Assembly: GCF_025753855.1 (NCBI RefSeq)
Contig: NZ_JAOWPT010000003.1
Coordinates: forward strand, 62,001 to 126,000
Source of the DNA: Mesorhizobium sp. ZC-5
GTDB lineage: Bacteria; Pseudomonadota; Alphaproteobacteria; Rhizobiales; Rhizobiaceae
Direction: 5' to 3'
DNA length: 64,000 bases
Made by a program: the position numbers and the translations under genes. Position 1 is the first letter of the stretch; the number at the start of each line of letters is the position of its first letter. A model generated the notes under the pieces. The model was not told where the DNA came from. It ran no database searches and worked only from the letters and a program-made list of their open reading frames with translations. Below, one piece after another: positions 476-17,794 of this stretch.

Positions 476-881
476 TCTGTTTCCGGCGACGTCCCTGATG
501 AAGTTTCCGCTGCCAAACCGGCAATTTCAGGGCGAAAAGTCCCAGCGTCGCCCGCGCGGCTTCCTTTTCCCCGATTTGACGATGGCCAACAAGGAAAATC
601 ACCCCGGCGCCGCGCCGATATGGAGATTAGGGTAAAGGCTGGTGCGAAGCCGCAACAAGCGGGCAGGCGGTCGCGGTTGGGCTACAGGCCAGCTCTTCAT
701 CTTCCATCGGCGGATGCCAGGCTTGCGCCGAAAGCGGCCAGCAGGATGCGAGTGATATGATGACCGTGGTGGGGCCGACAGCTGACAGTCCGATCCCGGA
801 TCTTGCCCAGCAGATAGCTGCCGTTCGGCAACCGACCTCATAGCGGCCAGTTTCTTATTTTCACCGTCAGCGGACGCACAG
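476..881. other. Intergenic stretch with no supported gene
   Basis: This stretch separates the divergent-looking 5' region of the penicillin-binding protein gene from the 3' end of the EEP protein gene. The open frames here are low-complexity Arg/Pro/Ser-rich translations with no recognisable motif, and they extend from the antisense of the penicillin-binding protein. It presumably carries the promoter of that gene, but no convincing -35/-10 pair was identified. Confidence 0.5.
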
Positions 882-1682
882 TCAGATATCGAGAACCAGC
901 GGGCAGTGGTCCGACACTTCTGGTTCGGTGACCACCGTGAAATGCCGAATTGGGACGTGTTGATTCACAAGCATGTAGTCGGCGAACTTGCCTGGCTTGC
1001 GATAGTACGAGCTTCGCGTTCCCTCGAACCCTCTGTTCGTGACCAAGTCCGTCAACCCGATCTTGGCCAGCACGGCGAAAGTTTCGCTTTCAGGCTCGAC
1101 ATTGAAGTCCCCGCACACGATCAGGGGATCGTCCGGCTCCGCGACCTGCTTCACCAAGTCAGTGAGCCTTTCAGCCTGGGCACGTCTTTCGGGGGTGTCC
1201 ATTTTTCCGCCGAGATCGCGCAGCCCATGCATGTGTCCAATGCATATCGACCGTCCCCGTGCGTAGTTATAGACGCGGATCGCATGGGCGCACCGCGACC
1301 TTGGGTGATCGCCGTACCCGTGAGGAGAAAATGACTTATGCACGAACCCTTGTGCTTGCGCCGAGATCGGCAGGGAGCGGTGAACGAACGTAGCCAGCCC
1401 CCACTGCGAAGGGACCGCCTCGTCATCATCCCAGAGCACGCCTTGGGCGGCCGGGCAGAATAGAGCAGTATGACAGGGCAGAGCAGTTGCGACGTCTTGG
1501 AAGAAATTCGCGCGTTGAGGGAGAATGTGGTCGCCGTCCCGATAGGTCAGCCAATCTTTCGCGGTCTCCGGGCTATGAACCACCTCCTGTAAGCAAAGGA
1601 CGTCGGGCTGGTCGGATTGGAGATACGATATCAACGCCTCATGTAGCTTGCCTCCCCAGCCGTTTAGACTCATGATTCTCAT
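882..1682 (-). CDS. Endonuclease/exonuclease/phosphatase (EEP) family protein
   Basis: The 266-residue protein has the EEP fold signatures in order: an N-terminal LNGWGG with the conserved Asn, LQEV with the metal-binding Glu33, a GHMHG motif, GDFN near residue 190 and a C-terminal SDHCPL. These are the catalytic and Mg-binding elements of the DNase I/exonuclease III/inositol phosphatase superfamily. No signal peptide is seen, so it is probably cytoplasmic. The substrate cannot be told from sequence; DNA, nucleotides, sugar phosphates or lipids are all possible in this superfamily. It stands alone, with no operon partners on its strand. Confidence 0.85.
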   Translation of the reverse strand: MRIMSLNGWGGKLHEALISYLQSDQPDVLCLQEVVHSPETAKDWLTYRDGDHILPQRANFFQDVATALPCHTALFCPAAQGVLWDDDEAVPSQWGLATFVHRSLPISAQAQGFVHKSFSPHGYGDHPRSRCAHAIRVYNYARGRSICIGHMHGLRDLGGKMDTPERRAQAERLTDLVKQVAEPDDPLIVCGDFNVEPESETFAVLAKIGLTDLVTNRGFEGTRSSYYRKPGKFADYMLVNQHVPIRHFTVVTEPEVSDHCPLVLDI

Positions 1683-1971
1683 TTCAACGTATTCCCAGCA
1701 TAGACATGCCTAAAGGCACCCTGTGTCTAAGGACACGATCGCGACATTGAGCCCTATAGTCGAACGTCAGCTTACGCAAACTAGCTAGAAAAGCAGCCAT
1801 GCGCTTTCCACGCAGACGAAGCTGTTCATAGTACTACTGCACGGGGCAGCAAGGAGATCGGCAGCTTTCGGGTATCCAAGTGGTAAAAGCAGCCATCATT
1901 TCATGACCTCTTGCGGACCTTCGTCCGCGCTATCAGATTACGGTCCCCAACAGATCCAAGGAGCCGAAACC

Positions 1972-2220
1972 ATGTTGAAAAACCCAGGCGTAGGACCGGC
2001 GCTGTCGGACGCGAGAGACGGCTACAACGCTGAATTTTTCAAGGCGTGTAAGTTGATTGAGAGTAAAGCGCTGAGCGAAAACCAGGCATTGTGGAACCTG
2101 ATGGTCCAGGGTGAAATCAGTCGCCTTGACACAAAAGAGCGGCTAGACACCCTCATTGGACTGCAACAAGAGTTGCTGGCGACGCAGCGCGAAATATTGG
2201 CAGAACTGAAAAAGCGATAA
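1972..2220 (+). CDS. Small protein with C-terminal coiled coil, unknown function
   Basis: A frame opens at 1903, but an AAGGAG at 1958-1963 sits eight bases before the ATG at 1972, so the 82-residue form is preferred. The last 35 residues are charged and heptad-like (repeated Leu with Glu, Lys and Gln) and should form a coiled coil, suggesting oligomerisation or partner binding. No signal peptide or catalytic motif is visible and I do not recognise the family. The surrounding DNA (about 1690-2300) looks less GC-rich than the rest of the window, which fits an accessory gene. Confidence 0.5.
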   Translation: MLKNPGVGPALSDARDGYNAEFFKACKLIESKALSENQALWNLMVQGEISRLDTKERLDTLIGLQQELLATQREILAELKKR

Positions 2221-2381
2221 CAGTATGGGGGCCGCTTGCCGACTGTCCGCTGCCAGTTTATCCAACATGAAGGCGGACACACGACCACGGATGCCAAGGT
2301 CTGGAATTGGCCCGAAGCTGAACTAGCGGGCGCAGTCGCGGCTGCTACACTTGCACGCAAGTCGAGCGGGTGATGCTGCAC

Positions 2382-3212
2382 TCATAGGAAGGGGCCAGGT
2401 GCGCCCAGAAGGATGCGCGCCCCTTCGTGGAAGTGGTTTGATGGCGGGGCCTTCAATCGAAACCGACGCAGCACGCGTTCTTCTGGTTCCACTTCCAACC
2501 TGAAATTGCCGCTCTCCAGCAAGTCGGCGATCCAATGGAGGAACTGACCGAGAGATTGCGCGAGCACCGCCTTCATATCTTCGTCGCGACCATAGATAAT
2601 GACTTGGCCTAAGCGTCCGCCAGGCCAAGGATCGAAATCGAGACCTATATGATTGCCAGAGCCGTCTCCGGTTAGCGGTATCCAGCGCGGGTTGATGTAA
2701 GATGGGTCTACCGCTCCTTGCGGCCACCCTGCCCCCGGAATTTCGTAGCGATTGCCGCCAAAGCTGGCGAGCACTTCATTCCACGACGTCCATTGCAACC
2801 GGGCCTGGTGCAGCGACAACAGCGGAAGGCCATAAATGTGGCCCCACCGGTCATCCTCTTCACCATCATGCCATCGGTACAGCTGTCGGTAGGCCCGCGG
2901 CATCTTGAGGCCAATTAGTTGCTCGAACGCATCTAGTTGCGCGTCCGTGGCCGGCGGATTCAACACATAATCGTCTGGCGGCAGGTGGGCCGCATACCAG
3001 GCGTCGAGGCGCGCAAGCACCGGTGCAATATCTTCCTCCAGCAACGGCTTCGCCTCTCCCGGTGGCCGCTCGGGACGGCTGTTCTCGCCCATGGCGGATT
3101 GCCTCGTGATTTGCTGCCTGGCGCACCTGGCAGGAAGCAATCCCGCAAGGATCAGAACTCCGAGGAGGGAGCCACCGATCAGCAGCCTACGCCTGGTCGG
3201 ATCCACTACCAA
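2382..3212 (-). CDS. SMI1/KNR4 (SUKH)-like protein with N-terminal membrane anchor
   Basis: The 276-residue protein starts with a short basic stretch and a hydrophobic segment (about residues 10-28) ending near a Cys, so it is probably membrane-anchored or exported. The central part has SMI1/KNR4 hallmarks: a helix with LPxxYRQLYRWHDG character, then WIPLTGDGSGNHIGLDFDP and a VIIYGRD strand. SUKH proteins often act as immunity proteins against polymorphic toxins, but many are free-standing, and no toxin gene is adjacent. The first codon is TTG, with GTG six bases downstream as an alternative, so the exact start is uncertain. The C-terminal 50 residues have no assigned domain. Confidence 0.75.
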   Translation of the reverse strand: MVVDPTRRRLLIGGSLLGVLILAGLLPARCARQQITRQSAMGENSRPERPPGEAKPLLEEDIAPVLARLDAWYAAHLPPDDYVLNPPATDAQLDAFEQLIGLKMPRAYRQLYRWHDGEEDDRWGHIYGLPLLSLHQARLQWTSWNEVLASFGGNRYEIPGAGWPQGAVDPSYINPRWIPLTGDGSGNHIGLDFDPWPGGRLGQVIIYGRDEDMKAVLAQSLGQFLHWIADLLESGNFRLEVEPEERVLRRFRLKAPPSNHFHEGARILLGAPGPFL

Positions 3213-3745
3213 AGACCTAGGCGCAGCCGGTCAACGCTTCGCACGCTTCAATGGCGTGGTAGATCTCCGTGTGGATCCACGATTTGCCGCCTCGATCAGT
3301 CCTTTTCGTCATCGTCAGCCACCATCCAGATTAGTGAGATTTGTGCACGTGGGCTCATCCGTGGCAACCTCTAGCACACACTCACCAGTATCCGCTTCTG
3401 CCGCAAAGGAGCCACCTCGGCTAGCTGCAGGGATGTCCGCTTCTGGACGGCGGCCACAATAACTTCAACGACCGCCATGGGGCGCAAAGCGGTCGGTTGC
3501 GCCTCGACTGGCGTAGGTGAGCAAGGGTCAGGGTTGGCCGTCGGGAGTTTGGTCGCCGCTTGCCAAATACCCAGGGGGTCAAAAATTCTTTGCACGAAAT
3601 AGGAATTTATTCTTGACACCGTGACGGTGCTCTGGTAGGTTATCGCTATCGTCGGAAAAGTGTGGGTGGCGAAGCCCACGGCTTCCGAAGGCGATACCGG
3701 AATGCTCCGGGCAAAACTCTCCCGAACCAACCATACAGGACGAAA
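3213..3745. other. Intergenic region upstream of the GTA cluster
   Basis: No supported gene lies here; the open frames on either strand are Arg/Ser-rich and lack motifs. It contains the putative GTA promoter at 3613-3641 and an untranslated leader of about 95 nt before the TerS start. The region separates the minus-strand SUKH gene from the plus-strand GTA genes, so it is a divergent intergenic region. Confidence 0.55.
3613..3641 (+). promoter_or_regulatory. Putative GTA cluster promoter with dyad in the spacer
   Basis: A perfect -35 TTGACA at 3613-3618 is separated by 17 bp from a -10-like TAGGTT at 3636-3641. The spacer overlaps a dyad at 3617-3629, CACCG-TGA-CGGTG, with perfect 5-bp arms. 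It is the only strong promoter-like pair upstream of the co-directional GTA genes. A repressor or activator binding the dyad would occlude or remodel RNA polymerase; that role is inference. Confidence 0.55.
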
Positions 3746-4348
3746 ATGCCAGCACCGATCCCGCCGGAACGGTGGGCGGCCGTGCGCGCGATCGCCGAAG
3801 GCGCGCCGCCGACCCAGCAGACCATCGCCACTGTCATGGGTGTACACCTGACCACCGTCGCCAAACGTTATGCCGATGAGAACTGGCAGGTGCTCGATTT
3901 CCGCCGCGCCGACATCGCCGCTGCCTACAAGGAATTATGGGACCGGCTGATCGGCCGTTTCCTGACCGGCGCCGAGCCTGTGGCCTACGATCCCGCGCCG
4001 GAGGACCAGGCGGTGGAGACGGCACTTGCCGCCGTCGACGACGTGCCGGCGGGGGAGTTGGCGGCGCGCATGGTGGATCTTGCCGCCCGCAGCGCCGCCC
4101 GCATCCTGGTGCGGGCCGAGGCGCGCGGCGGCGTGTTGAGCAAGGGCGACGCGGATGCGTTGAGCTCGATCGCCAAACTCTCCGAACGGATGGAGACCGT
4201 TGCCGGCAAGCATGCGGCCAAGCAGGAAGAAAAGAGCGACAATGAACTCGCCACACTCCTCGGACGCATCGACGACCGGATCGTGGAACTCGCCCGAGCC
4301 TTTGCAGAGCGGCTGGTCGCGGGAGAACGTGCCGCCGAACTGGGCTGA
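3746..4348 (+). CDS. GTA small terminase subunit (RcGTA g1-like)
   Basis: The frame opens at 3662, but the ATG at 3746 has AGGA five bases upstream and begins the conserved part, giving 200 residues. An N-terminal helix-turn-helix (about residues 17-45, TQQTIATVMGVHLTTVAKRY) fits the DNA-recognition domain of small terminases, followed by Ala/Glu-rich helices expected to oligomerise. In Rhodobacter GTA the g1 product is the TerS that feeds DNA to TerL for headful packaging. Its 3' end overlaps the start of the large terminase by about 107 bp, implying translational coupling. It is the first gene after the putative promoter. Confidence 0.75.
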   Translation: MPAPIPPERWAAVRAIAEGAPPTQQTIATVMGVHLTTVAKRYADENWQVLDFRRADIAAAYKELWDRLIGRFLTGAEPVAYDPAPEDQAVETALAAVDDVPAGELAARMVDLAARSAARILVRAEARGGVLSKGDADALSSIAKLSERMETVAGKHAAKQEEKSDNELATLLGRIDDRIVELARAFAERLVAGERAAELG

Positions 4349-5591
4349 ACCGGTTTGCGGCGAATGGTTTGGAAGCGCGCGACCGCTGCAATATCCGTTG
4401 CTGTTCGAACGACCGGTGAGCTGGTTCGTCAGCGGCGGGCGCGGCGCCGGCAAGACCCGGCTCGGCGCCGAATGGGTGAACGGGCTGGTGCACGGATTCT
4501 CGCCCTTCACCGAGCCGCGCAGGAAATACGGCCACATCGCCCTGGTCGGCGAGACGCTGGGCGACGTGCGCGAAGTGATGGTGGAGGGCGTCTCGGGAAT
4601 CCTGGCGATCTCGCGGCGCGGACGGCCGTGCCTCCAGACGGGCCGGCGCAGGCTGGTGTGGGACAACGGCGCGGTGGCGCAGTTCTTCTCCTCCGAAGAT
4701 CCCGAGAGCCTGCGGGGACCGCAGTTCGATGCCGCCTGGTGTGACGAGGCAGCGAAGTGGAAGAACGCCGAAGCCTGCTTCGACATGCTGCAGTTTGGAC
4801 TGAGGCTCGGCGAAAGGCCGCGGCAGCTGGTCACCTCGACGCCGAAACCGACGCCGCTGATCAAGCGGCTGATGGCCGACCCGGATTTCGTCAAGACGCG
4901 GATGCGGACGGCCGACAATGCGGCGAACCTGGCACGCGGCTTCCTGAAGGCGGTTCGCAGCCGCTATGGCGGCACGCGGCTCGGCAGGCAGGAGCTTGAC
5001 GGCGAGCTGATCGAGGATCGCGAGGACGCCCTGTGGTCGCGGGACATGATCGAGGAGGTCCAGACGGCACGGCCTGCCGAACTGCGCAGGATCGTGGTGG
5101 CGGTCGACCCGCCGGCGAGTTCGCTGAAGACGTCGGACGCCTGCGGCATCGTCGCCGCCGGACTGGACCGGGACGGCACCGCGATCGTGCTGGCCGACGC
5201 GACCATCCGGGCCGCCCGACCGCAGGAATGGGCGAATGCGGCGGTCGGCCTGTTCCATCGGCTCGAGGCGGATTGCCTGGTCGTCGAAATCAACCAGGGC
5301 GGCGACATGGTGGGCGCGGTGATCGCCACCGTCGACCCAGAGGTGCCGGTCAAGCCGGTGCGGGCGCGGCGTGGGAAATGGCTGCGGGCCGAACCGGTCG
5401 CAGCGCTTTATGAGCAGCGAAAAGTCCGCCACGCGGCGCGGTTCCCCGAACTGGAAGACGAAATGTGCGATTTCGGGCCGAACGGCCTGTCCAACGGGCG
5501 CTCGCCGGACCGGGTCGACGCACTGGTGTGGGCGATTACGGAACTTTTGCCGAAGTCGGCGGCGAGGCCGAGAATACGGGATTTTGGGTGA
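4242..5591 (+). CDS. GTA large terminase (RcGTA g2-like)
   Basis: The 449-residue protein carries the packaging ATPase Walker A GGRGAGKT (Lys71 with this start), a Walker B-like AAWCDEA and a C-terminal RNase H-fold nuclease with VAVDPP, VVEINQGGDM and RSPDRVDALVWA. These acidic positions match the metal-binding sites of TerL nucleases. It translocates DNA into proheads and cuts it when full. The frame extends to 4200, but the ATG at 4242 lies behind a purine-rich stretch and gives the usual length. In this gene order the portal should follow immediately, yet the next gene is DUF6107; see findings. The protein itself appears complete. Confidence 0.93.
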   Translation: MNSPHSSDASTTGSWNSPEPLQSGWSRENVPPNWAEPVCGEWFGSARPLQYPLLFERPVSWFVSGGRGAGKTRLGAEWVNGLVHGFSPFTEPRRKYGHIALVGETLGDVREVMVEGVSGILAISRRGRPCLQTGRRRLVWDNGAVAQFFSSEDPESLRGPQFDAAWCDEAAKWKNAEACFDMLQFGLRLGERPRQLVTSTPKPTPLIKRLMADPDFVKTRMRTADNAANLARGFLKAVRSRYGGTRLGRQELDGELIEDREDALWSRDMIEEVQTARPAELRRIVVAVDPPASSLKTSDACGIVAAGLDRDGTAIVLADATIRAARPQEWANAAVGLFHRLEADCLVVEINQGGDMVGAVIATVDPEVPVKPVRARRGKWLRAEPVAALYEQRKVRHAARFPELEDEMCDFGPNGLSNGRSPDRVDALVWAITELLPKSAARPRIRDFG

Positions 5592-5593
5592 AG

Positions 5594-5716
5594 GAGCAGG
5601 GGAGTGGGCAGTAGGCAGTAGGCAATAGGGATTTCGGCTGTGGCCTCCTGCCCGGAACTCCGCGCTCCTGCCGCTCTATCTCCCCGACTGCCTACTGCCT
5701 ATTCCCTACTGCCTCC
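5594..5716. repeat. Inverted heptanucleotide repeat array (GGCAGTA type) in place of the portal gene
   Basis: The left arm (5594-5630) has about three to four units of GGCAGTA/GGCAATA, and the right arm (5682-5716) has the reverse-complement units CTGCCTA, TTCCCTA and CTGCCTC. The two arms can pair into an imperfect stem of roughly 25 bp around a 50-nt loop. The array begins three bases after the terminase stop codon. No portal coding sequence remains in the 145-bp gap. Confidence 0.85.
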
Positions 5717-5736
5717 CTTATCCGGGAACCAAACCC

Positions 5737-6081
5737 ATGACCGATTTCAACGAAGCCGCCTGGCTGTGGGCGGCGCGGGGTGCTGGCGCAGTTGCCGGTT
5801 CGGCGGTGTCGCTGGCCTACATCCTGCCCAGCGGGCGCCGCGAGGCAGCACTTCGCTTCGCCGCCGGCGTGGTCTGCGGCCTCGTCTTCGGCGGCACGGC
5901 CGGACTGAAGATCGCGACGGAACTCGGCATCGCCGAAACGATCGGCAGCTTCGAACTGATGCTGATGGGATCGGCCGCGGCCAGCCTGTGCACCTGGTGG
6001 GCGCTCGGTCTCCTGGCGCGGGCTTTTGAACGGGGACGGTGGGCATGGTCGAAGAGTCGAAGGAAAAGCGATGAACGCTGA
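5737..6081 (+). CDS. DUF6107-type small membrane protein of the GTA cluster (g3.5 position)
   Basis: This 114-residue protein has hydrophobic segments at about residues 13-31, 40-58 and 75-95 and a basic C-terminal tail (KSRRKSDER), so it should be an inner-membrane protein. It occupies the position of the small gene between portal and protease in Rhodobacter GTA and resembles the DUF6107 family found at this spot in rhizobia. Its role is unknown. Its last 11 bp overlap the prohead protease start. The upstream neighbour is a repeat array where the portal should be. Confidence 0.7.
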   Translation: MTDFNEAAWLWAARGAGAVAGSAVSLAYILPSGRREAALRFAAGVVCGLVFGGTAGLKIATELGIAETIGSFELMLMGSAAASLCTWWALGLLARAFERGRWAWSKSRRKSDER

Positions 6082-6769
6082 CTGGATCACCCGCCTGTGC
6101 GAGAGGAAATTCGTCGGGCTTGTCGTCGATGAACTGGAGCCCAACGGCTCCTTCTCGGGTTATGCGAGCCTTTTCGGTCGCGTCGACCTGGGACGCGACG
6201 TGGTCGAACGCGGCGCGTTCGCGAAATCGCTGAGGACGCGGGGTGCGGCCGGCGTGCGCATGCTGTTCCAGCACGACCCGCGCGAACCGATCGGCACCTG
6301 GACGGAACTGCGGGAAGACGCGCGCGGGCTGTTCGTGCGCGGCAGGCTGACCGAGGGCGTCAGCCGCTCGAAGGAAGTTTTGAACCTGATCCGCGGCGGC
6401 GCGCTCGACGGGCTGTCGATCGGCTTTCGCGCCATCAGGGCGAAGAACGACGGCGCCAGCGGCGTGCGTCGGATTCTCGAGGCGGATCTCTGGGAAATCT
6501 CGGTGGTGACGTTTCCAATGCTGCCGGACGCCCGCGTCGAGCGGATCAAGGGCTTCGGGCGCGGACGTCCGCTGCCGACGACACGCGAATTCGAACGCTG
6601 GCTCACGCGGGATGCTGGGCTGACACGCGGCGACGCCAGGGCGGTGATCGCCAAGGGGTTCGCCAACCTCGTCCGCGAGCGGGATGCCGCAAGGAATACG
6701 CCGGGCGGCATCGTCGAGATGATCCGCGCGGCGACACGCATGATCAACGGAAAGGATAGTCTTCGATGA
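6071..6769 (+). CDS. HK97-family prohead protease (RcGTA g4-like)
   Basis: A frame is open from 6026, but the ATG at 6071 has an AAGGA upstream and starts conserved sequence, giving 232 residues. Motifs of the herpesvirus-like assemblin protease are present: GYASLFGRVDLGRDVVERGAF near the N-terminus, the catalytic-type FQHDPREPIGTW (His) and GLSIGFRA (Ser in the SxGF element). It would cleave the scaffold part of the capsid protein during head maturation. The gene overlaps DUF6107 by 11 bp and the capsid gene by 4 bp (ATGA), so translation is probably coupled through the head genes. Confidence 0.9.
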   Translation: MNADWITRLCERKFVGLVVDELEPNGSFSGYASLFGRVDLGRDVVERGAFAKSLRTRGAAGVRMLFQHDPREPIGTWTELREDARGLFVRGRLTEGVSRSKEVLNLIRGGALDGLSIGFRAIRAKNDGASGVRRILEADLWEISVVTFPMLPDARVERIKGFGRGRPLPTTREFERWLTRDAGLTRGDARAVIAKGFANLVRERDAARNTPGGIVEMIRAATRMINGKDSLR

Positions 6770-8022
6770 CCAGTGACCTGCAGGCGCCGGCGCCTGAAAC
6801 CAAGGCGATCGGCAGTTTCGACCTGCCCGACGCCTTCGACGAATTCATGAACTCGTTCGAGGCGTTCAAGGACGCCAACAATGAGCGGCTGGCGCAGATC
6901 GAAAAGCGCATGACCGCCGACGTGGTGACCACCGACAAGGTCGAGCGCATCTCGCGCGTGCTCGACGAACAGAAGCGGGCGCTCGACACGATGGCGCTAA
7001 GCAAGGCCCGCCCGGTGCTCGGCCGCGAAACGCGTTCCGGCGTGCTCGACACCGAACACAAGCAGGCCTTCGACGCTTATGTGCGCAACGGCGACGACCG
7101 GCTGCTGCGTTCACTCGACACCAAGGCGATGTCGTACGGTTCGGGCCAGGACGGCGGTTATCTGGTGCCAGACGAAACCGAGGCCGAGATCGGCAAGCGG
7201 CTCGCCGCACTGTCGCCGATCCGCTCCATCGCGTCGGTGCGGCAGGTGTCCGCGGCGGTGCTGAAGAAGCCGTTCGCGATCACCGGGCCGGCGGTGGGCT
7301 GGGTAGGCGAAACGGCGGCGCGGCCGCAGACGGCGAGCTCGACGCTGGCCGAGCTGCAGTTTCCGACGATGGAACTCTACGCCATGCCGGCGGCGACGGC
7401 CTCGCTGCTGGAAGACAGCGTCGTCGATCTCGACCAGTGGATTTCGGGCGAGGTCGAGGCGGCGTTCGCCGAACAGGAGGGTGCTGCCTTCGTCAGTGGC
7501 GACGGCACCAACAAGCCGCACGGTTTCCTCGATTACACGATGGTGGCGGAAGCCAGCTGGAGCTGGGGCAATCTCGGTTATGTCGCGACCGGCGTTGCCG
7601 GCGCGCTGCCGGCGAGCAATCCGTCCGACGTGCTGATCGACACGGTCTACGCGCTGAAGGCGGGATACCGGCAGAACGCCAGCTGGGTGATGAACCGCAA
7701 GACGCAGGCCGCGATCCGCAAGCTCAAGGACGCCGACGGGAACTATCTGTGGCAGCCGCCGGCGGCAGCCGGCCAGCGGGCCATGCTGATGGGCTTTGCG
7801 CTGGTGGAGGCTGAGGACATGCCGGACGCGGCAACCGATGGGACGCCGATCGCATTCGGCGATTTCTCGCGCGGCTACCTGGTCGTCGACCGGACCGGGG
7901 TGCGCGTCTTGCGCGATCCGTATTCCGCCAAGCCCTACGTGCTGTTCTACACGACCAAGCGCGTCGGCGGCGGGGTGCAGGACTTCGACGCGATCAAGCT
8001 GTTGAAATACGGCGTGAGCTGA
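6766..8022 (+). CDS. HK97-fold major capsid protein (RcGTA g5-like)
   Basis: The 418-residue protein has a charged, coiled-coil N-terminal third (about residues 20-85), the usual cleaved scaffold domain, followed by the HK97 core. Core features include GGYLVPDETEAEI, a hydrophobic spine helix, an EQEGAAFVSGDGTNKPHGF element and a C-terminal VGGGVQDFDAIKLLKYG. It forms the GTA head shell. The start codon overlaps the protease stop. A 137-bp repeat element begins four bases after its stop, and a second class of hairpin repeat follows before the next gene. Confidence 0.95.
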   Translation: MTSDLQAPAPETKAIGSFDLPDAFDEFMNSFEAFKDANNERLAQIEKRMTADVVTTDKVERISRVLDEQKRALDTMALSKARPVLGRETRSGVLDTEHKQAFDAYVRNGDDRLLRSLDTKAMSYGSGQDGGYLVPDETEAEIGKRLAALSPIRSIASVRQVSAAVLKKPFAITGPAVGWVGETAARPQTASSTLAELQFPTMELYAMPAATASLLEDSVVDLDQWISGEVEAAFAEQEGAAFVSGDGTNKPHGFLDYTMVAEASWSWGNLGYVATGVAGALPASNPSDVLIDTVYALKAGYRQNASWVMNRKTQAAIRKLKDADGNYLWQPPAAAGQRAMLMGFALVEAEDMPDAATDGTPIAFGDFSRGYLVVDRTGVRVLRDPYSAKPYVLFYTTKRVGGGVQDFDAIKLLKYGVS

Positions 8023-8293: not shown

Positions 8294-8863
8294 ATGACTC
8301 TGTTTCGCACCGTGGAGCCCGGCGCCGAGCCGGTAACGCTGGTCGAGGTGAAGGAGCATCTGCGCCTCGGCCACGCCAGCGAGGACGGGCTGCTTACCGG
8401 CCTGATCCGGGCGGCACGCGAGGAGGTGGAGCGCGCCACCGGCATTGCGCTGATCGACCAGAGCTGGCGGCTGGCGCTCGATCGCTGGCCGCGCAGCGGC
8501 ACGATATATCTCGCCCGTCATCCGGTGCGGAGCGTGATTTCCGTCACTGCCTATGGTGCGGACGGCGGCGCGTCGCTGGTGCCGCCGTCGACTTACCAGG
8601 TCGACGTGCTGGCGCGTCCGGCGCGTCTTCATTTCGAGGATACGCCGGCGCCGCTGCGGCGGATGAACGGCATCGAGATCGACTTTCAGGCCGGCTACGG
8701 CGAGGCGGGGACGGACGTTCCCGACACGCTGAAGCGGGCCATCCTTGTGCTGACCGCGCATTGGTACGACCTGCGCGGTGCCTTCGGTCCGGAAAGCCAG
8801 CCGGCCTCCTATCCCGCCGGCTACGAGCGACTGATCGCGGGATACAAGGCAAGGAAGCTCTGA
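8294..8863 (+). CDS. Head-tail connector / adaptor protein (RcGTA g6-like)
   Basis: The 189-residue protein fits the phage gp6-like head-tail connector family: an N-terminal VTLVEVKEHLRL helix, AAREEVERATGIALIDQSW, a central HPVRSV strand with the variable loop, and a C-terminal LKRAILVLTAHWYDLRG helix. The ring formed by this protein would sit below the portal, which makes the missing portal notable. Its stop codon overlaps the start of the next gene by one base (TGATG), implying coupling. The gene appears intact. Confidence 0.88.
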   Translation: MTLFRTVEPGAEPVTLVEVKEHLRLGHASEDGLLTGLIRAAREEVERATGIALIDQSWRLALDRWPRSGTIYLARHPVRSVISVTAYGADGGASLVPPSTYQVDVLARPARLHFEDTPAPLRRMNGIEIDFQAGYGEAGTDVPDTLKRAILVLTAHWYDLRGAFGPESQPASYPAGYERLIAGYKARKL

Positions 8864-9308: not shown

Positions 9309-9503
9309 ATGAATCTCGCTATGCGACTGACGCTCGACGGGCTTGTCAGGGCACTGAAATACAAGGCGGGCGATCTGGCGGAAACCGCGCAACGGCGATA
9401 CCCTTCGCAAGGGGATGATGCCGTCGCGATGGCTTCAATGCGGTTGGTTCGCGAGCGGCGGCAGGTATCTGGGGGAGATTGCTATGACAGCTGCGGCCGC
9501 TGA
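9309..9503 (+). CDS. Small protein of the GTA cluster, unknown function
   Basis: A 64-residue frame begins seven bases after a strong GGAGG ribosome binding site. The N-terminal half (MNLAMRLTLDGLVRALKYKA) is an amphipathic helix; the remainder is polar and basic. Its last 20 bp overlap the start of the tail terminator gene, the tight packing typical of this operon. I do not recognise the family. The ribosome binding site and overlap argue for translation, but the C-terminal half has weak protein character and could be degraded. Confidence 0.5.
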   Translation: MNLAMRLTLDGLVRALKYKAGDLAETAQRRYPSQGDDAVAMASMRLVRERRQVSGGDCYDSCGR

Positions 9504-9900
9504 ACTGCAGAAGGCGATCTTCTCGTCGCTGTCGAGCGACGCGGCGCTGGTGGCGATGCTGGGCGGCGCCCGCATCTTCGACCAGGCGCCGGCCAATGTC
9601 GCCTTTCCCTACATCACCTTCGGGCGCACCAGCATCTACGACTGGAGCACCGGCACCGAAAGCGGCACCGAACAGCTGTTCACCCTGCATGTCTGGTCGA
9701 AGATGAAGGGCAAGAAGGAAACGCTCGACATCATGGAGCTGGTGCGCAAGCGGCTCAACGATGTCGCGCTGCCGCTCGACGGCCACCACCTGGTCAACCT
9801 GCGTGTCGAATTCACCGAAGCGCGCCACGACGACAACCTTTCCGTCCATCACGGGCTGGTGAGGTTCCGGGCAGTGACGGAAGAAGAGAGTAGTGAGTAG
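9484..9900 (+). CDS. DUF3168 tail terminator / tail completion protein (RcGTA g8-like)
   Basis: The frame opens at 9415, but the ATG at 9484 preceded by GGGGGAG begins the conserved AAELQKAIFSSLSSDAAL helix, giving 138 residues. The DUF3168 pattern continues with IFDQAPANVAFPYITFGRT, HVWSK and a C-terminal VEFTEARHDD strand. Members cap the tail tube and join it to the head neck. The last residues (S-S-E) and the stop are encoded by the heptanucleotide repeat that follows, so the true C-terminus may have been replaced when the repeat arrived. Confidence 0.85.
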   Translation: MTAAAAELQKAIFSSLSSDAALVAMLGGARIFDQAPANVAFPYITFGRTSIYDWSTGTESGTEQLFTLHVWSKMKGKKETLDIMELVRKRLNDVALPLDGHHLVNLRVEFTEARHDDNLSVHHGLVRFRAVTEEESSE

Positions 9901-10011: not shown

Positions 10012-10428
10012 ATGGTCGCACAGAAGGGCAAGGACCTTCTGCTCAAGATCGATTCCAACGGTCTGGGCAGCTTCGTGACTGTCGCAGGGCTGCGGTCGAA
10101 GCGGATTGCGTTCAACAGCGAGACGGTCGACATCACCGACGCGGATTCGGCCGGGCGCTGGCGTGAACTGCTGGCCGGAAGCGGCGTGCAGCGCGCGGCG
10201 GTCGGCGGCTCGGGCATTTTCAAGGACGCCCAGTCGGACACGGCGATCCGTTCGCGCTTCTTCGCCGGCGAGATCGTCGACTGGCAGTTTGTGGTGCCGA
10301 GTTTCGGCGTCGTCGAAGGCGCGTTCCAGGTTACGGCGCTCGAATACACCGGCGCGCATGACGGCGAGGTGACGTTCGAGATCGCGCTGGAATCTGCGGG
10401 ACCGGTCAGCTTCGCGGTGGCGCCATGA
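10012..10428 (+). CDS. Major tail tube protein, TP901-1 type (RcGTA g9-like)
   Basis: This 138-residue protein has the tail tube profile: GKDLLLKIDSNGLGSFVTVAGL at the N-terminus, the conserved FNSETVDITDADSAGRWRELL loop and a beta-rich C-terminal half (VTFEIALESAGPVSF). It forms the hexameric tail tube rings. The gene ends in a 4-bp ATGA overlap with the first tail chaperone gene. It looks intact. Confidence 0.92.
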   Translation: MVAQKGKDLLLKIDSNGLGSFVTVAGLRSKRIAFNSETVDITDADSAGRWRELLAGSGVQRAAVGGSGIFKDAQSDTAIRSRFFAGEIVDWQFVVPSFGVVEGAFQVTALEYTGAHDGEVTFEIALESAGPVSFAVAP

Positions 10429-10769
10429 TCGCCAACCGCCGCCGCGGCGAGATCGCGGCCGAATTCGACGGCAAGCCGTACCGGCTCTGCCTGACGCTCG
10501 GGGCGTTGGCGGAACTGGAGGCGGTCTACGCCGCCGACGATCTCGGCGCGCTGGTCGAGCGCTTCTCGCGCGGCAGGCTGTCGGCGCTCGACATCATCCG
10601 GGTGATCGGCGCCGGCCTGCGCGGCGGCGGCAGCGCCATTTCCGATGACGAGGTGGGCGCGATGCAGTCGGCCAATGGGGCTGCCGGCTTCGCGGCCACC
10701 GTGGCGGAACTGCTGGCGGCCACGTTCGGCGCCGCTGAGCAGGCGGAGACGCCGCCAAAAAACCCTTGA
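10425..10769 (+). CDS. Tail assembly chaperone, GTA gp10-type
   Basis: The 114-residue protein matches the gene transfer agent gp10 family, with RRGEIAAEFDGKPYRLCLTLGALAELE at the N-terminus and SALDIIRVIGAGLRGGG in the middle. It is thought to chaperone the tape measure protein, like lambda gpG. Its final sense codons are CCA AAA AAC CCT before TGA, which places the slippery heptamer A AAA AAC (10757-10763) in the correct phase for a -1 shift into the next frame. See findings. Confidence 0.88.
   Translation: MIANRRRGEIAAEFDGKPYRLCLTLGALAELEAVYAADDLGALVERFSRGRLSALDIIRVIGAGLRGGGSAISDDEVGAMQSANGAAGFAATVAELLAATFGAAEQAETPPKNP
10757..10763 (+). promoter_or_regulatory. Candidate -1 programmed frameshift site (A AAA AAC)
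   Basis: The heptamer is phased X XXY YYZ relative to the gp10 frame, two codons before its stop. A -1 slip carries ribosomes into the gp10.1 frame without encountering a stop. A small hairpin (CGTTCC-CGT-GGAACG, 10794-10808) lies 30 nt downstream, farther than usual for a stimulator. Function is inferred by analogy to lambda G-GT. Confidence 0.5.
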
Positions 10770-11756: not shown

Positions 11757-12407
11757 ATGGCTGACTTTACAAGTTTTCACGACGTGCTTTTTCCCGCCGC
11801 GATCTCGTTCGGCGCGACCGGCGGATCGGAGCGGCGCAACGAAATCGTGCTGATGACGTCAGGGCGCGAGCGCCGCAACGCGCGGTTCTTCGATTCGCGC
11901 CGCCATTATGACGCCGGCACCGGGGTGCGCTCGCTGGAAGATCTCCATGACGTGCTTGCCTTCTTCGAGGCACGGCGCGGCTCGTTGCATGCGTTCCGTT
12001 TTCGAGACCCTTTCGACATGAAGTCGTGCAGGCCGAACCAGACGGTGTCGCCGCTTGACCAGGATATCGGTGTCGGCGACGGGGCGACCGCGCGCTTCGT
12101 CCTGACCAAGAACTACGGTTCCGGCAACGATACATACCGGCGGAGCATCCTGAAGCCGGTTGCGGCGACGGTGCGGGTCGCCGTCGACACGGTGGAACGA
12201 ACGAACCCGGCGGGTTTCACGATCGATCTGGAGACCGGCGAATTGGTTTTCCCGCCGGGCGGCGTGCCGGCGGCGGGCATGGCAATCACGGCGGGATTCG
12301 AGTTCGACGTTCCCGTGCGCTTCGACACCGAGCGCATCGAGGTCAGCCTGACCGGGTTCAAGGCCGGCCAGATCCCCTCGATCCCTCTCGTCGAGGTGCA
12401 GCCATGA
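11757..12407 (+). CDS. DUF2460 distal tail protein (RcGTA g12-like)
   Basis: The 216-residue protein matches the TIGR02217/DUF2460 family: FHDVLFPAAISFGATGG at the N-terminus, ERRNARFFDSRRHYDAG, FFEARRGSLHAFRFRDPFD and a C-terminal VPVRFDTERIEVSL. It forms the distal tail ring connecting tube to hub. Its stop overlaps the next start by 4 bp (ATGA). It appears complete. Confidence 0.92.
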   Translation: MADFTSFHDVLFPAAISFGATGGSERRNEIVLMTSGRERRNARFFDSRRHYDAGTGVRSLEDLHDVLAFFEARRGSLHAFRFRDPFDMKSCRPNQTVSPLDQDIGVGDGATARFVLTKNYGSGNDTYRRSILKPVAATVRVAVDTVERTNPAGFTIDLETGELVFPPGGVPAAGMAITAGFEFDVPVRFDTERIEVSLTGFKAGQIPSIPLVEVQP

Positions 12408-13294
12408 GCGTCTATCCCGAAGCGATGGCCGAACATCTCGCCGGCACCGTTACCACGCTTTGCCATTGCTGGCGGCTGATGCGGAAGGACGGCTTGGCCG
12501 CCGGCTACACCGATCATGACCGGCAGTTGGAAATCGACGGCGTCGTGTTCGAGCCGGAGTCGGGTTTCAGCGCCAGCGAGGCGCGCGACACGTTGGGACT
12601 GGCGACTGACACCGTCGATGTCGAGGGCGCCTTGTCGTCGCTCGACATCCGCGAAGAGGATATTGCCGCCGGCCACTACGACGGCGCAATGGTCGAGACG
12701 TTGTTGGTCAATTGGATGCAGCCGTCGCAATTCGCGCGGCTGAGGACAGCCACCATCGGCAAGATCACCCGCAGCGACCAGCGCTTCGTCGCCGAACTGG
12801 AGAGTCTGGCGCATTCACTGGATATAGTACGCGGCCGCCATGTGCGGCGCGGTTGCGATGCCGAACTCGGCGACCAGCGCTGCGGCTTCCTGCTTTCGCA
12901 GGCCGGTTTCTATGGGGCGGGGACGGTCGCATCGGTGCCGGGCGCTGGGGTGATTGCTGTTTCGGGTCTCGGCGGTTTCGACAGCGGCTGGTTCTCGCAT
13001 GGCGTGCTGACCTGGCAATCCGGGCCTGATGCAGGCCGGCAGGTGCGGATCGTCAGCCATCAGCGAAAGGGCGCTGAGGTGACCATTTCGTTCTGGCAGG
13101 AAAATGCGCTCGACCCGCAGACGGGCGATGCGTTTACTGTCGTCGCGGGCTGCGACAAGATTTTTGCGACATGCAAGGCGAAGTTTGCCAATGCTGCGAA
13201 TTTTCGCGGATTTCCGCATCTGCCGGGCAATGATGCAGGCTACGCCTACGTGACCGACGGCGGCCGGTTCGATGGCGGGGCGTTGGTGTCGTAA
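12404..13294 (+). CDS. DUF2163 hub protein (RcGTA g13-like)
   Basis: The 296-residue protein belongs to TIGR02218/DUF2163. Four cysteines occur as Cys151-x8-Cys160 and Cys250-x6-Cys257 ([14 protein letters not shown] and [13 protein letters not shown]), a pattern that fits an iron-sulfur or other metal site like those reported for tail tip hub proteins. The conserved [11 protein letters not shown] lies near the C-terminus. It forms the baseplate hub. A heptanucleotide array starts at the first base after its TAA stop. Confidence 0.9.
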
Positions 13295-13431
<137 letters not shown>

Positions 13432-13900
13432 TTACCGGCACGCGACGATCCGCATGACGAGACGGCGGCGCTGATCGTCACGGCGGCGAGAGAATGGATA
13501 GGCACGCCCTATCGCCATCAGGGCTCGAAGCAGGGCGTCGGCTGCGACTGCCTCGGCCTGGTGCGGGGGATCTGGCGGGCGGTCTATGGCGGCGAGGCGG
13601 AACGGCCGGCGGCCTACGCGGCGGACTGGGCGGAAGCCGGCGGCGAAGACCTGTTCCTCGCTGCCGCACGGCGCCATTGCCGCGAGAAGCCGATCGGCGA
13701 GCGGATACCCGGCGACCTGCTGCTGTTCCGGTGGCGTCCGCATCTGCCCGCCAAGCACGCCGGTATTCTCGTTGAGAACGGCTGCTTCATCCATGCCTAT
13801 CAGGGGCACTGCGTGACCGTCTCGTCGCTGGTGCCGCAATGGCGGCGGAGGATCGCGGCGGTCTTTTGCTTCCCCACCCCGAACAATTGAGGCGGCCCGC

Positions 13901-16900
13901 ATGGCAACCATCATCCTGCAGGCCGCCGGCGCGTTTCTTGGCGGCTTTCTCGGGCCGGTCGGCACCGCGGTCGGGACCGCCGCGGGCGCCATGGCCGGCT
14001 ATGCCATCGACCGGGCGCTGATCGACGGCACGCGGCGCCACGAAGGGCCGAGGCTCACCGGTGCGCGGCCGTTCACCGCGGAAGAGGGGACCGCGCTGCC
14101 GCGCGTCTACGGCACCGCGCGGATTGGCGGCACGCTGATCTGGGCGACACGCTTCGAGGAGGACAGGACCACCAAGCGCCAGGGCTCCAAGGGAGGGCCT
14201 AAGGTGACGGAATACAGCTACTTCGCCAACGCGGCGTTTGCGCTGTGCGAGGGAAGGATCGCCGGCATCCGCCGCATCTGGGCGGACGGCAAGGAACTCG
14301 ACCGCGAAACTGTGGAGATCCGCATTTATTACGGGTCGGAAGACCAGACTCCCGATCCTCTGATCGAGGCGAAGCAGGGTGCCGGCAACGCGCCGGCCTA
14401 TCGCGGCACCGCCTATGTCGTCTTCGACAGGCTGCCGATCGGCGACTACGGCAACCGTATCCCGCAGTTGCAGTTCGAAGTGCTGCGTCCGGTTGGCGAG
14501 GTGGCGCAAGGCATTCGGGCCGTGGCCCTCATCCCCGGCTCGACCGAATTCGGACTGTCTCCGCACCTCGTCACCCGCGAGATATCGGCGGGCGACACGC
14601 AGGCGCTGAACCGGCACGTGCTGCATGCGGCGACCGATCTCGCGGCGTCGCTCGACGAGCTTCAGGCGCTGTGCCCGAATCTCGAACATGTGGCGCTGGT
14701 CGTAGCGTGGTTTGGCAACGATCTGCGCGCCGGGCATTGCGCGATCCGGCCGGCGGTGACCGATCGTCTGGTTTCCGGGCTGTCGCAGGAATGGAAGGTT
14801 TCAGGGTTGACGCGGACGACGGCGCCGCTGGTTTCGAGCCATGGCGGCGGTGCTGCCTATGGCGGATCGCCATCGGATCGCTCGGTGATCGACGCGATCG
14901 CCGAGATCAAGTCACGCGGTCTCAAGGTGACGCTCTATCCCTTTGTCATGATGGATATTCCGGCGGGCAACGCGCTGCCCGACCCCTATGGCGGCCTGGC
15001 CCAGGCTGCCTATCCGTGGCGCGGACGGGTCACCTGCCACCCGGCGACATTGCAGCCAGGCTCAGCCGACAAGACAGCCGCTGCGCGGACGCAGGTCGCT
15101 AACTTCTGTGGCGCCGCGCAACCGGGCGATGTCGTGGCCGAGGCGGGCACGATCCCCTTCCATGGCGATCCCGACGATTGGGGCTATCGCCGTTTCGTGC
15201 TGCATTTCGCCAGGCTGGCGGCCGCCGCGGGCGGTGTCGACGCCTTCCTGGTAGGTTCCGAACTGCGCGGGCTGACGACCTTGCAGGACGAGGAGAATGC
15301 TTTCCCGTTCGTCGAGCAATTGTGCGGCTTGGCAGCGGACATACGCACGATCCTGGGGCCGGACACCAAGATCACCTACGGCGCCGACTGGAGCGAATAT
15401 TTCGGCCATCATCCCGCGGACGGCAGCGGTGACGTCTTCTTCCATCTCGACGCGTTCTGGTCGCATGCCGCGGTCGATGCGGTCGGCATCGACAATTACA
15501 TGCCGTTGTCGGACTGGCGCGACCAGGATTATGCCGGCGGCAACCCGGACAACTTTGCCGGGCCATATGATCCGGAAAGGTTGCGGTACTCGATCGCGAG
15601 CGGCGAGGGGTTCGACTGGTATTATCCGACAGACGCGGCGCGGATTGCGCGGGAGCGCGCGCCGATCACCGACGGCGCTTATGGCAAGCCGTGGATCTAC
15701 CGCTACAAGGACATCGCCGGCTGGTGGTCGAACCTGCATCATGACCGCATCGCGGGTGTCGAGGCGGCGGAGTCGACGGGTGCCGCGGTCGAAGCCGGTG
15801 TGGTTCACCGAACTCGGTTGCCCGGCCGTCGACAAGGGACCGAACCAGCCGAACGTCTTTCCCGATCCAAAATCGGCCGAGAGCGCCGTGCCTTATTTTT
15901 CCAACGGCGGACGCTCAGATCTCGCGGTGCAGCGGCTGCTGGCGGCGCACCGGCAGCATTGGGACCCGGCGAGCCCGCAATTCGTGCCGGACGCGAATCC
16001 GATCTCGCCGGTCTATGGCGGACGCATGGTGGACCGCAGCGGATCTATGCCTGGGCCTGGGATGCGCGGCCGTTTCCGGTATTTCCGGCGAGCGGCGGCA
16101 TCTGGCGGGACGGGGACAACTGGCGGCTGGGGCATTGGCTGAACGGCCGCCTGAGCGGCATCGGCTGCGGCGACCTGATCAACGCGGTGCTGGCCGATCA
16201 TGGCCTGCCGGTGGCCGAAATCGGCAACGTCGACGGCACCATGCATGGCTATGTCGTTTCCGATCCCGCGTCGGCGCGTGCAGCACTCGAGCCGGTGATC
16301 GATCTTTTCGGGATCGCCGTTTGCGAGATCGGCGGAGGACTGAGCTTCCGCCGCGAAATTGCGGGGAACATGCCGTCGGCCGCGGTCACCGAACTGGTGG
16401 TCGAAGGCAGGCAGCCGGTCATCGAAATCTCGCGCGTGCCCGATCACCAGTTGCCGACCGAAGCGATCCTGGGCTTCCGCGATCCATTCGCGGACTACCA
16501 GGCCGGGTCGGCACGCAAATTGAGGCAAGGAACATCTGCCCACCGGCAGGAGACGATCGGGTTTCCCGGCGTGCTGGAGGCTGGTGAGGCGGCCGCACTC
16601 CTGGACGACTGGATGCGGAGGACTTGGTCGCGGCGCGAAAGCGTTTCGTTTGCGGTGCCGGCGCCCGAAGCTGGCGTCGAGCCCGGGGCGATCATCCGTC
16701 TCCCGGCCATCGGCGCGTCGGAATTCCTCGTCACCGAAATCGAGGACGGGCTGACGCGAAAGGTTTCGGCGCGGCAGGTGTCGAGGTCGGCACCCGTACC
16801 CGCCGACGGCAGGCTGCCGGTAGTCAACCCGCCGCCCTTGACGATCGCCGGGCGGCCGCTGAGCCTGTTTCTCGATCTGCCGATGGCGCCTGGCGCAAGC

Positions 16901-17794
16901 CAGCCGCACCAGCAGTTTCGCGTTGCTGTGTGGAACCGAGCCTGGCGCAGCCAAATGGTATTCGCTTCGCCCGAGGATAGCGGGTTCGTCCAGCGGGCGT
17001 CGGTCGGCGTGGCGGCGACGATCGGCCGGCTCGTCGATCCGCTTGGAGCCGGTTTCGAAGGGCGCATCGACCGCACGGGAACCATCACCGTGAAGCTGTT
17101 CGACGGGGAACTGGCAAGCGTCAGCCAGCTGCAATTGCTCAACGGCGCCAATGTCGCGGCGATACGATCGGCGATCGGCGTCTGGGAGCTGGTCCAGTTC
17201 GAGACCGTCGAGGAATATGCGCCGGGTGAGTGGTCGCTGACCGGGCTGCTGCGACGGCAGCTCGGCACGACGGACGCGATGGCTGCGGGTGCCGCGGCCG
17301 GCGCCGATTTCGTGCTGATCGACGAGGCGGTGCGCGCCGCAGGCCTGCTGCCGGGGGAATGCGGGCTGGCGATGAACTGGCGGGTGGGGCGGGCCGGCCA
17401 TGATTTCTCGGCGGCCAATTTCGTGCAGCGAACGGAGACGGGCGGCATTCGCTCCAGCCTACCGCTGGCGCCGGCACATCTCAGGGGCAGGCTGTCGGCG
17501 GCCGGCGACCTTGCGATCGAATGGAAAAGGCGCGGCCGCATCGACGCCGACAGCTGGCAAGGCCTCGACATTCCGCTCGGCGAGGAAACCGAAACCTACC
17601 GGATCGAGATCGCGACCGTTGACGGCATCCCAGTCAGGACGGCGACGGCGGCGACGCCGCACTGGATCTATGCCGCAGCGCAGATCGCCGCCGATCTTTC
17701 ACCCATTCCGCCCGAGATCGACGTCGCCGTTTCGCAGCTGAGCGCAACCGCCGGCTGGGGCCTGCCCGCAAGGCGGCGGCTCTCGCTCGTCTGA
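13901..17794 (+). CDS. GTA baseplate / host-specificity protein with TIM-barrel-like domain (RcGTA g15-like), double frameshift
   Basis: The 1297-residue frame begins with a hydrophobic AAGAFLGGFLGPVGTAVG segment, then a glycoside-hydrolase-like TIM barrel domain (about residues 440-720) and C-terminal tail-protein domains. Between about 15776 and 16034 the conserved sequence (WFTELGCPAVDKG, NQPNVFPDPKSAESAV, SPVYGGRMVD) is found in the +1-shifted frame, while the open frame reads Arg-rich nonsense. A shift equivalent to a 5-base deletion near 15780 and a 1-base deletion near 16034 compensate each other. About 84 residues, including the WFTELG strand of the barrel, are therefore scrambled. 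The protein is probably made but defective, unless these are sequencing errors. Confidence 0.85.
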   Translation: MATIILQAAGAFLGGFLGPVGTAVGTAAGAMAGYAIDRALIDGTRRHEGPRLTGARPFTAEEGTALPRVYGTARIGGTLIWATRFEEDRTTKRQGSKGGPKVTEYSYFANAAFALCEGRIAGIRRIWADGKELDRETVEIRIYYGSEDQTPDPLIEAKQGAGNAPAYRGTAYVVFDRLPIGDYGNRIPQLQFEVLRPVGEVAQGIRAVALIPGSTEFGLSPHLVTREISAGDTQALNRHVLHAATDLAASLDELQALCPNLEHVALVVAWFGNDLRAGHCAIRPAVTDRLVSGLSQEWKVSGLTRTTAPLVSSHGGGAAYGGSPSDRSVIDAIAEIKSRGLKVTLYPFVMMDIPAGNALPDPYGGLAQAAYPWRGRVTCHPATLQPGSADKTAAARTQVANFCGAAQPGDVVAEAGTIPFHGDPDDWGYRRFVLHFARLAAAAGGVDAFLVGSELRGLTTLQDEENAFPFVEQLCGLAADIRTILGPDTKITYGADWSEYFGHHPADGSGDVFFHLDAFWSHAAVDAVGIDNYMPLSDWRDQDYAGGNPDNFAGPYDPERLRYSIASGEGFDWYYPTDAARIARERAPITDGAYGKPWIYRYKDIAGWWSNLHHDRIAGVEAAESTGAAVEAGVVHRTRLPGRRQGTEPAERLSRSKIGRERRALFFQRRTLRSRGAAAAGGAPAALGPGEPAIRAGRESDLAGLWRTHGGPQRIYAWAWDARPFPVFPASGGIWRDGDNWRLGHWLNGRLSGIGCGDLINAVLADHGLPVAEIGNVDGTMHGYVVSDPASARAALEPVIDLFGIAVCEIGGGLSFRREIAGNMPSAAVTELVVEGRQPVIEISRVPDHQLPTEAILGFRDPFADYQAGSARKLRQGTSAHRQETIGFPGVLEAGEAAALLDDWMRRTWSRRESVSFAVPAPEAGVEPGAIIRLPAIGASEFLVTEIEDGLTRKVSARQVSRSAPVPADGRLPVVNPPPLTIAGRPLSLFLDLPMAPGASQPHQQFRVAVWNRAWRSQMVFASPEDSGFVQRASVGVAATIGRLVDPLGAGFEGRIDRTGTITVKLFDGELASVSQLQLLNGANVAAIRSAIGVWELVQFETVEEYAPGEWSLTGLLRRQLGTTDAMAAGAAAGADFVLIDEAVRAAGLLPGECGLAMNWRVGRAGHDFSAANFVQRTETGGIRSSLPLAPAHLRGRLSAAGDLAIEWKRRGRIDADSWQGLDIPLGEETETYRIEIATVDGIPVRTATAATPHWIYAAAQIAADLSPIPPEIDVAVSQLSATAGWGLPARRRLSLV

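What the first reader, a model, noticed from the sequence alone, without database searches (positions are those of the whole stretch)
5592..5736. Portal protein gene missing from an otherwise complete GTA head operon
In Rhodobacter-type GTAs the portal (g3) lies between the large terminase and the small g3.5 gene. Here the terminase stop (5591) and the DUF6107 start (5737) are separated by only 145 bp, all of it accounted for by an inverted heptanucleotide array and a ribosome binding region. No other frame in the window looks like a portal. Terminase, protease, capsid and connector look intact. Either the portal was deleted and the particle cannot assemble, or a portal is supplied from elsewhere in the genome.
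Basis: partly seen in the sequence, partly recalled or inferred. Interest (0 to 1): 0.8.

Follow-up and report, generated by a model that had tools for sequence, protein, structure and literature searches.

The report
Gene transfer agent missing its portal
This bacterium keeps almost all genes for a virus-like DNA-transfer particle but has lost the one that makes its DNA gate, most likely by recombination between short repeats, so it probably can no longer make working particles.

Summary
Confirmed. Terminase (stop 5591) and DUF6107 (start 5737) are 145 bp apart. In all 70 of 81 related loci where both genes lie on the fetched stretch, the portal gene sits between them. The window's own draft genome (68 contigs) has no HK97/GTA-type portal by Pfam model, sister protein or family profile; the profile finds the portal in both congeners. 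Contigs as small as 506 bp were kept, so a dropped portal contig is unlikely. Of 134 family genomes with DUF6107, 3 lack any PF04860 portal; the other two show only decayed remnants.

The 145 bp looks like a scar. In the sister G002 (apparently Mesorhizobium albiziae) two inverted heptamer elements bracket the portal. The window keeps the first element's left arm and spacer, then the second's DUF6107-side flank, as if recombination in the heptamers deleted the portal. G002's GTA carries a different lesion. GTA decay is already published, so the case is a new member of a known kind. Less expected: period-7 arrays concentrate at the portal's two flanks across relatives, 29 of 37 arrays.

The parts
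5592..5736 (.). probable portal-deletion scar between TerL and DUF6107
   Evidence: left part and spacer align best to the sister's TerL-portal element, right flank and gene to its portal-DUF6107 element
5600..5630 (+). left arm, GGCAGTA-type heptamers
5631..5682 (+). spacer homologous to the spacer of the sister's element in front of the portal (score 53 against 16 for the other element)
5683..5713 (+). right arm (TACTGCC-type heptamers); inferred crossover region
   Evidence: matches both sister elements (46 and 38)
5714..5736 (+). DUF6107-proximal flank with ribosome-binding region; best match is the sister's DUF6107 flank (18 against 12)
3662..4348 (+). probable small terminase (gp1-like), fast-evolving; HTH_29 below cut-off
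   Evidence: 34-39% to three relatives; no match found in G001 or G002
4242..5591 (+). large terminase (gp2)
   Evidence: PF03237 and PF17289
5737..6081 (+). DUF6107 (g3.5)
   Evidence: PF19602
6071..6769 (+). prohead protease (gp4)
6766..8022 (+). major capsid protein (gp5)
8294..8863 (+). head-tail connector/adaptor (gp6)
   Evidence: PF05135
8863..9195 (+). head completion protein (gp7)
   Evidence: PF05521
9189..9248 (+). GGGAGTA heptamer array between gp7 and gp8
9484..9900 (+). tail completion (gp8)
   Evidence: PF11367
9939..9978 (+). heptamer array between gp8 and gp9
10012..10428 (+). major tail protein (gp9)
10425..10769 (+). gp10, GTA tail assembly protein
   Evidence: PF11836
10766..10999 (+). 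gp10.1, tail assembly chaperone
   Evidence: PF09550
10992..11600 (+). gp11 (tape-measure position; identity by synteny, recalled order)
   Evidence: 67-78% to relatives; no Pfam hit
11757..12407 (+). gp12, distal tail protein (Rcc01695 family)
12404..13294 (+). gp13, baseplate hub
13294..13433 (+). inverted heptamer element between gp13 and gp14 (arms 13294-13351 and 13401-13433)
13363..13890 (+). gp14, NlpC/P60 peptidase; start uncertain
13901..17794 (+). gp15, baseplate megatron, 1297 aa open frame
   Evidence: NF048004, 1503 bits

Best explanation
This is an RcGTA-type gene cluster from which the portal gene (g3) was cleanly deleted. In the ancestor it shared with its sister species, the portal lay between TerL and DUF6107, with an inverted heptamer element on each side (shown for the sister; inferred for the ancestor). 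Arms of the two elements that point the same way are direct repeats of each other. Recombination or replication slippage between them, with the crossover in or next to the right arm at 5683-5713, removed the portal and left one hybrid element (inferred from the alignment). Without a portal dodecamer the large terminase has no docking site and the adaptor (gp6) and tail have no vertex to join. The cell should therefore at most make portal-less shells and separate tails, and transfer no DNA (inferred from the RcGTA structure). The strain would be a GTA non-producer in early decay: the remaining genes are still open, and no tested head gene evolves significantly faster than in the sister.
For: Portal between the same genes in 70 of 70 loci that hold TerL and DUF6107 (81 examined), both congeners included. 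No portal in the own genome by three queries, with a positive control in the congeners for the profile. Hybrid alignment of the scar. Identical 26-bp direct repeat in the left arms flanking the sister's portal. Contigs of 506-831 bp kept (9 of the 19 lengths looked up), and none of the six other heptamer places of this genome lies at a contig end, the nearest 2.5 kb away. Other GTA genes open; dN/dS 0.11-0.24 for correctly framed head genes and gp9 against the sister and 0.14-0.24 for gp10-gp15 against G001. The RcGTA portal is a dodecamer that replaces a capsid pentamer, and the adaptor binds it (PMC7296036, passages).
Against: One draft genome and no reads, so an assembly fault is not excluded. 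The right-flank match is weak (18 against 12), and the scar is compared with one sister species. In today's sister the right arms share only a 10-bp identical stretch, against 26 bp in the left arms, yet the kept spacer places the crossover to the right; the ancestral arms may have been more alike, or the event was not simple recombination. Two Chelativorans loci (L060, L064) have 2.4 and 2.0 kb behind TerL without a portal before their contigs end, and in L074 a portal match begins only 7.5 kb behind TerL. Loss of particle production was not measured. Low dN/dS mostly reflects the time before the deletion.
Confidence: 0.8

Rival explanations
1. Assembly artefact: the two similar heptamer elements were collapsed and the portal segment fell out of the assembly.
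For: The sister shows two such elements with 26 bp in common around the portal, a structure that short-read assemblers can collapse. The genome is a 68-contig draft.
Against: A portal segment left out would be a contig of over 1 kb. Contigs of 506-831 bp were kept, yet no contig carries a portal. The elements are shorter than usual read lengths (general knowledge), and the six other heptamer places of this genome are assembled through.
Confidence: 0.11
2. The portal is supplied in trans from a prophage or a relocated gene.
For: Several portal families (SPP1, P22, T7, T4, Mu types) were not searched.
Against: No PF04860 match and no PF05136 match over its cut-off in the whole genome; the 22-row portal profile is empty here while finding both congeners; the TerL query has only one match in this genome.
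Confidence: 0.03
3. The head genes are kept for a portal-free purpose, such as a closed protein shell, and are under selection for it.
For: Capsid and protease of the window have 0 residues departing from columns invariant in all other sequences, while TerL has 2 (rank 3 of 82). HK97-type shells can form without portals (recalled, no call).
Against: Tail genes are equally open and have no use in such a role; the median sequence also has 0 such residues; relative-rate tests are not significant in any of six genes, TerL p 0.085, capsid p 0.27. A recent deletion explains everything.
Confidence: 0.04

Closest known systems
RcGTA-type gene transfer agent head-tail cluster (Rhodobacter capsulatus)
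   Same: Gene order and families from terminase to baseplate megatron, including GTA-gp10, GTA TIM barrel, Rcc01695 and Rcc01698 families
   Different: Portal (g3) absent; heptamer elements in several gaps
GTA cluster of G002 (Mesorhizobium albiziae DSM 21822, inferred from equal contig length and coordinates)
   Same: Sister in the TerL, capsid, protease and DUF6107 trees (support 0.70, 0.89, 0.985, 0.914); similar element after TerL
   Different: Has the portal plus a PIN-toxin gene behind it, but lacks the 3' end of gp9 to the middle of gp15 and has a frame change in the rest of gp15
Pseudogenised GTA clusters described in Alphaproteobacteria (PMC10883770, passages seen)
   Same: Clusters that have lost production capacity, suggested there to mark recent cheater lineages
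   Different: Here a single clean gene deletion with a readable scar; the main text of that paper holds the word portal 0 times

Membership tests
RcGTA-type GTA cluster | syntenic head-tail genes terminase to megatron | tested here: met
RcGTA-type GTA cluster | portal gene g3 between terminase and g3.5 | tested here: not met
   present in 70 of 70 loci that hold TerL and DUF6107 (81 examined)
RcGTA-type GTA cluster | inheritance with the host lineage | tested here: met
   window and G002 are sisters in four gene trees; G001 is next in TerL, capsid and DUF6107 but not in protease
RcGTA-type GTA cluster | produces particles that transfer host DNA | not testable with these tools
   needs the strain
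Decayed GTA cluster | loss of an essential structural gene with relatives intact | tested here: met
   that the portal is essential is taken from structure and phage knowledge
Decayed GTA cluster | relaxed selection on the remaining genes | tested here: inconclusive
   six head genes tested, none significant; TerL lowest p 0.085

The most novel reading that the evidence does not exclude
In several Mesorhizobium-like lineages the GTA portal is a bracketed, deletion-prone unit: period-7 inverted elements sit on both sides and mostly share the same heptamer within a genome although the heptamer differs between genomes. They would drop the portal at appreciable frequency and so generate GTA-non-producing but still receptive cells, which kin particles could later restore by homologous transfer. 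The window would be a lineage in which the deleted state became fixed.
Probability: 0.1. Interest if true: 0.75.

Novelty: new member of a known kind. Interest (0 to 1): 0.42.

Why it matters
It gives a natural single-gene, apparently recent knock-out of a gene transfer agent with a readable scar, which makes the cheater hypothesis for GTA loss testable at strain level. It also points to repeat arrays at the two edges of the portal gene as a possible route by which GTA production is lost.

Tried and rejected
TerL replacement by transfer: suspected because TerL is 75% identical to the sister while capsid and protease are 90%. Rejected: the TerL tree groups window, G002 and G001 (support 0.925), and the TerL/capsid distance ratio is similar for G002 (3.9) and G001 (3.4); TerL simply evolves faster.

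Relaxed selection after the loss: relative-rate tests against G001 or majority residues gave no significant result in six head genes. The singleton test covered the same six; its script stopped with an error at gp8, so gp8 to gp12 were not tested.

Portal-like frame elsewhere in the window: none. PF05136 hint on contig C16: an ATPase-like ORF by eye, rejected. Rfam on the window: no match. tRNA scan of the window: none. A strict inverted pattern was too narrow (of 21 genomes only G002 had it, at one place, not the GTA). Two paper searches for the heptamers: one search listed one paper on oligonucleotide composition, not opened; one search listed none. Other listings were seen as listings only, except three papers of which I saw passages.

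Faulty rows not used: the query named portalG001 was translated in the wrong frame; the gp8 entry started in the wrong frame (4 stops). Shuffles were single-base shuffles despite the function name. The strict array finder did not flag the scar itself; the looser finder does.

Mended: L064 has 2.0 kb behind TerL without a portal (I had called all five portal-less loci close to a contig border), and the right arms of the sister share only 10 bp. Confidence went from 0.82 to 0.80 and the assembly rival from 0.10 to 0.11 for that reason.

Full report
Observation. TerL ends at 5591 and DUF6107 starts at 5737; the 145 bp between hold a pair of inverted heptamer arms with a 52-nt spacer. The RNA would form a strong hairpin (-70.1 kcal/mol, z -4.2, 0 of 200 shuffles as good). 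The surrounding genes are a GTA cluster by curated models: terminase, DUF6107, prohead protease, HK97 capsid, connector, head and tail completion, tail tube, GTA-gp10, tail assembly chaperone, distal tail, baseplate hub, NlpC/P60 peptidase and megatron. A portal model built from 71 relatives finds no portal in the window.

Whole genome. G000 is 6.34 Mb in 68 contigs, completeness 100. PF04860 gives no match in it, while the same search matches in 52 of 61 genomes, G000 counted among the 61. The sister's portal protein finds nothing (best E 4.2). A 22-sequence profile finds nothing at E<=10; as a positive control it finds the full-length portal in both congeners, plus a weaker second match in G001 and a 29-residue remnant in G165. 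PF05136 gives one match below cut-off in an ATPase-like ORF. Other portal families were not searched.

Base rate. In the same 199 genomes of the family, DUF6107 is found in 134 and PF04860 in 162. Comparing the printed lists, 3 of the 134 lack PF04860: the window's genome, G073 and G165, the last two of one genus. In the 18-kb stretch of G165 I found only part of TerL, portal pieces, DUF6107, parts of gp7, gp8 and gp9, and no capsid or protease; in the 16.8-kb stretch of G073, which ends at its contig border, DUF6107 and a 38% terminase. So the window is the only one of the 134 with an otherwise complete cluster and no PF04860 portal anywhere. Genomes whose GTA portal is lost but which hold a prophage portal would be missed by this count.

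Synteny. Of 80 named loci found with TerL (the best 80 of 435 relatives), 75 hold a portal ORF or part of one on the stretch. Of the other five, L039, L050 and L082 end 232, 201 and 76 bases behind TerL, the first two showing the start of a portal; L060 and L064, both Chelativorans, have 2.4 and 2.0 kb without a portal before the contig ends. In a third Chelativorans, L074, a partial portal match begins 7.5 kb behind TerL. With G001 added (81 loci), 70 hold both TerL and DUF6107, and all 70 have the portal between them. L071 holds a truncated portal and L059 a split one.

The scar. The window's spacer matches the first element (score 53 against 16), its right arm matches both (46, 38), its right flank matches the second best (18 against 12), and DUF6107 follows (78 against 20). 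This is what a crossover between the right arms would leave. In today's G002 the left arms share 26 identical bases and the right arms 10, so the arms that should have recombined are the less similar pair there; the crossover point is therefore an inference.

Repeat arrays around the portal in relatives. A period-7 array finder over 81 loci (1.28 Mb) gives 37 arrays, some of them weak: 14 in the TerL-portal gap (7 loci), 15 in the portal-DUF6107 gap (10 loci), 4 upstream of TerL and 4 downstream of DUF6107. In 66 loci with all six reference genes in order, the two portal gaps hold 26 arrays in 35.6 kb, the three next gaps (DUF6107-protease, protease-capsid, capsid-gp6) 0 in 18.2 kb, and the TerL, portal and capsid coding regions 1 in 245 kb, where single-base shuffles gave 2.3. 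Most loci have none: 55 of 66 have no array on either side. Five have arrays on both sides; Fisher p = 0.00026 for co-occurrence, not corrected for relatedness. In four of the five the same heptamer is used on both sides (identical stretches of 34, 26, 21 and 18 bp) although the heptamer differs between loci; in the fifth, L095, it differs. By record title three of these five are metagenome-assembled genomes. The window itself has further arrays between gp7-gp8, gp8-gp9 and gp13-gp14; with the scar's two arms all six arrays of its 64 kb lie in the GTA cluster. In its genome the GGNAGTN pattern falls in 9 places by my grouping of 34 hits (control pattern 0), 3 of them in the roughly 17-kb GTA cluster. 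The arrays are not GTA-specific: G002, G223 and above all G224 carry them in other places too, G225 carries this heptamer at one other place, and G001 has none by this pattern. G224 is the genome of L093, G225 that of L087.

State of the rest. dN/dS between window and G002 is 0.11-0.18 for DUF6107, protease, capsid, gp6, gp7 and gp9, and 0.24 for TerL; against G001 gp10 to gp15 give 0.14-0.24. No tested head gene evolves significantly faster than in G002. TerL has 2 residues at otherwise invariant columns (E to Q and T to S; rank 3 of 82). G002 itself has lost everything from the last residues of gp9 to about residue 666 of gp15 and has a frame change later in gp15. Two members of one genus thus carry different lesions, while G001 has TerL to gp15, the last cut at residue 817 by the end of the stretch fetched.

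Mechanism and consequence. In RcGTA a portal dodecamer (g3) replaces a capsid pentamer and binds the adaptor gp6 (PMC7296036, passages). That terminase docks on portals is established phage knowledge (recalled). I therefore infer that this strain cannot fill heads or join tails. Published work reports pseudogenised and lost GTAs in multiple alphaproteobacterial lineages and proposes that pseudogenised clusters may mark recent cheaters (PMC10883770, passages). The window fits that idea but does not test it.

Verdict. The main rival is an assembly fault (0.11), weakened by the retained small contigs. The kind of event is known. I did not see the concentration of heptamer arrays at the portal's edges described, but only two paper searches looked for such repeats.

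Noticed in passing
L024 10723-12234, L052 4882-5673, L092 10636-14661, L057 9368-10241, L043 10545-12262: The gaps beside the portal carry over 400 bp in 22 of 70 loci. Of 28 cargo ORFs scanned with Pfam 7 had a match: PIN-domain toxins (L024, L052), HipA (L092), a HicB-like antitoxin (L057), SecY just above cut-off (L046) and, below cut-off, a CdiA-CT RNase A domain (L043) and YagK_YfjJ_C (L062); 21 had none.
   Followed up: partly
L104:1475-2537 (G001): About 1 kb of unrelated sequence between TerL and portal in G001. It looks like a HicAB-type pair by eye, but the one ORF scanned had no Pfam hit.
   Followed up: partly
L105:2220-2310: In-frame tandem copies of a unit of about 24 bases (CCTTCGACAGGCTCAGGA-type) inside the G002 portal gene, not seen in the G001 portal.
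   Followed up: no
window 13294-13460: An inverted heptamer element sits at the start of gp14; the ATG at 13453 is out of frame with the gp14 body and the in-frame ATGs lie upstream, so the frame runs through the right arm of the element. gp14 may be impaired.
   Followed up: partly
window 760-3660: About 2.9 kb lies between the upstream gene and the small terminase, more than in L025, L027 and L031; it holds an Exo_endo_phos gene (882-1682) and a SUKH-family (SMI1/KNR4) immunity-like gene (2382-3212).
   Followed up: partly
L074 9341-16887; also L060 and L064 behind TerL: Three Chelativorans loci have 2.0 to 7.5 kb of other sequence behind TerL before a portal or the contig end; not identified.
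   Followed up: no
L071 9306-10118: A MAG with a truncated portal and no DUF6107 within the 8 kb behind TerL, perhaps another broken GTA or a misassembly.
   Followed up: no
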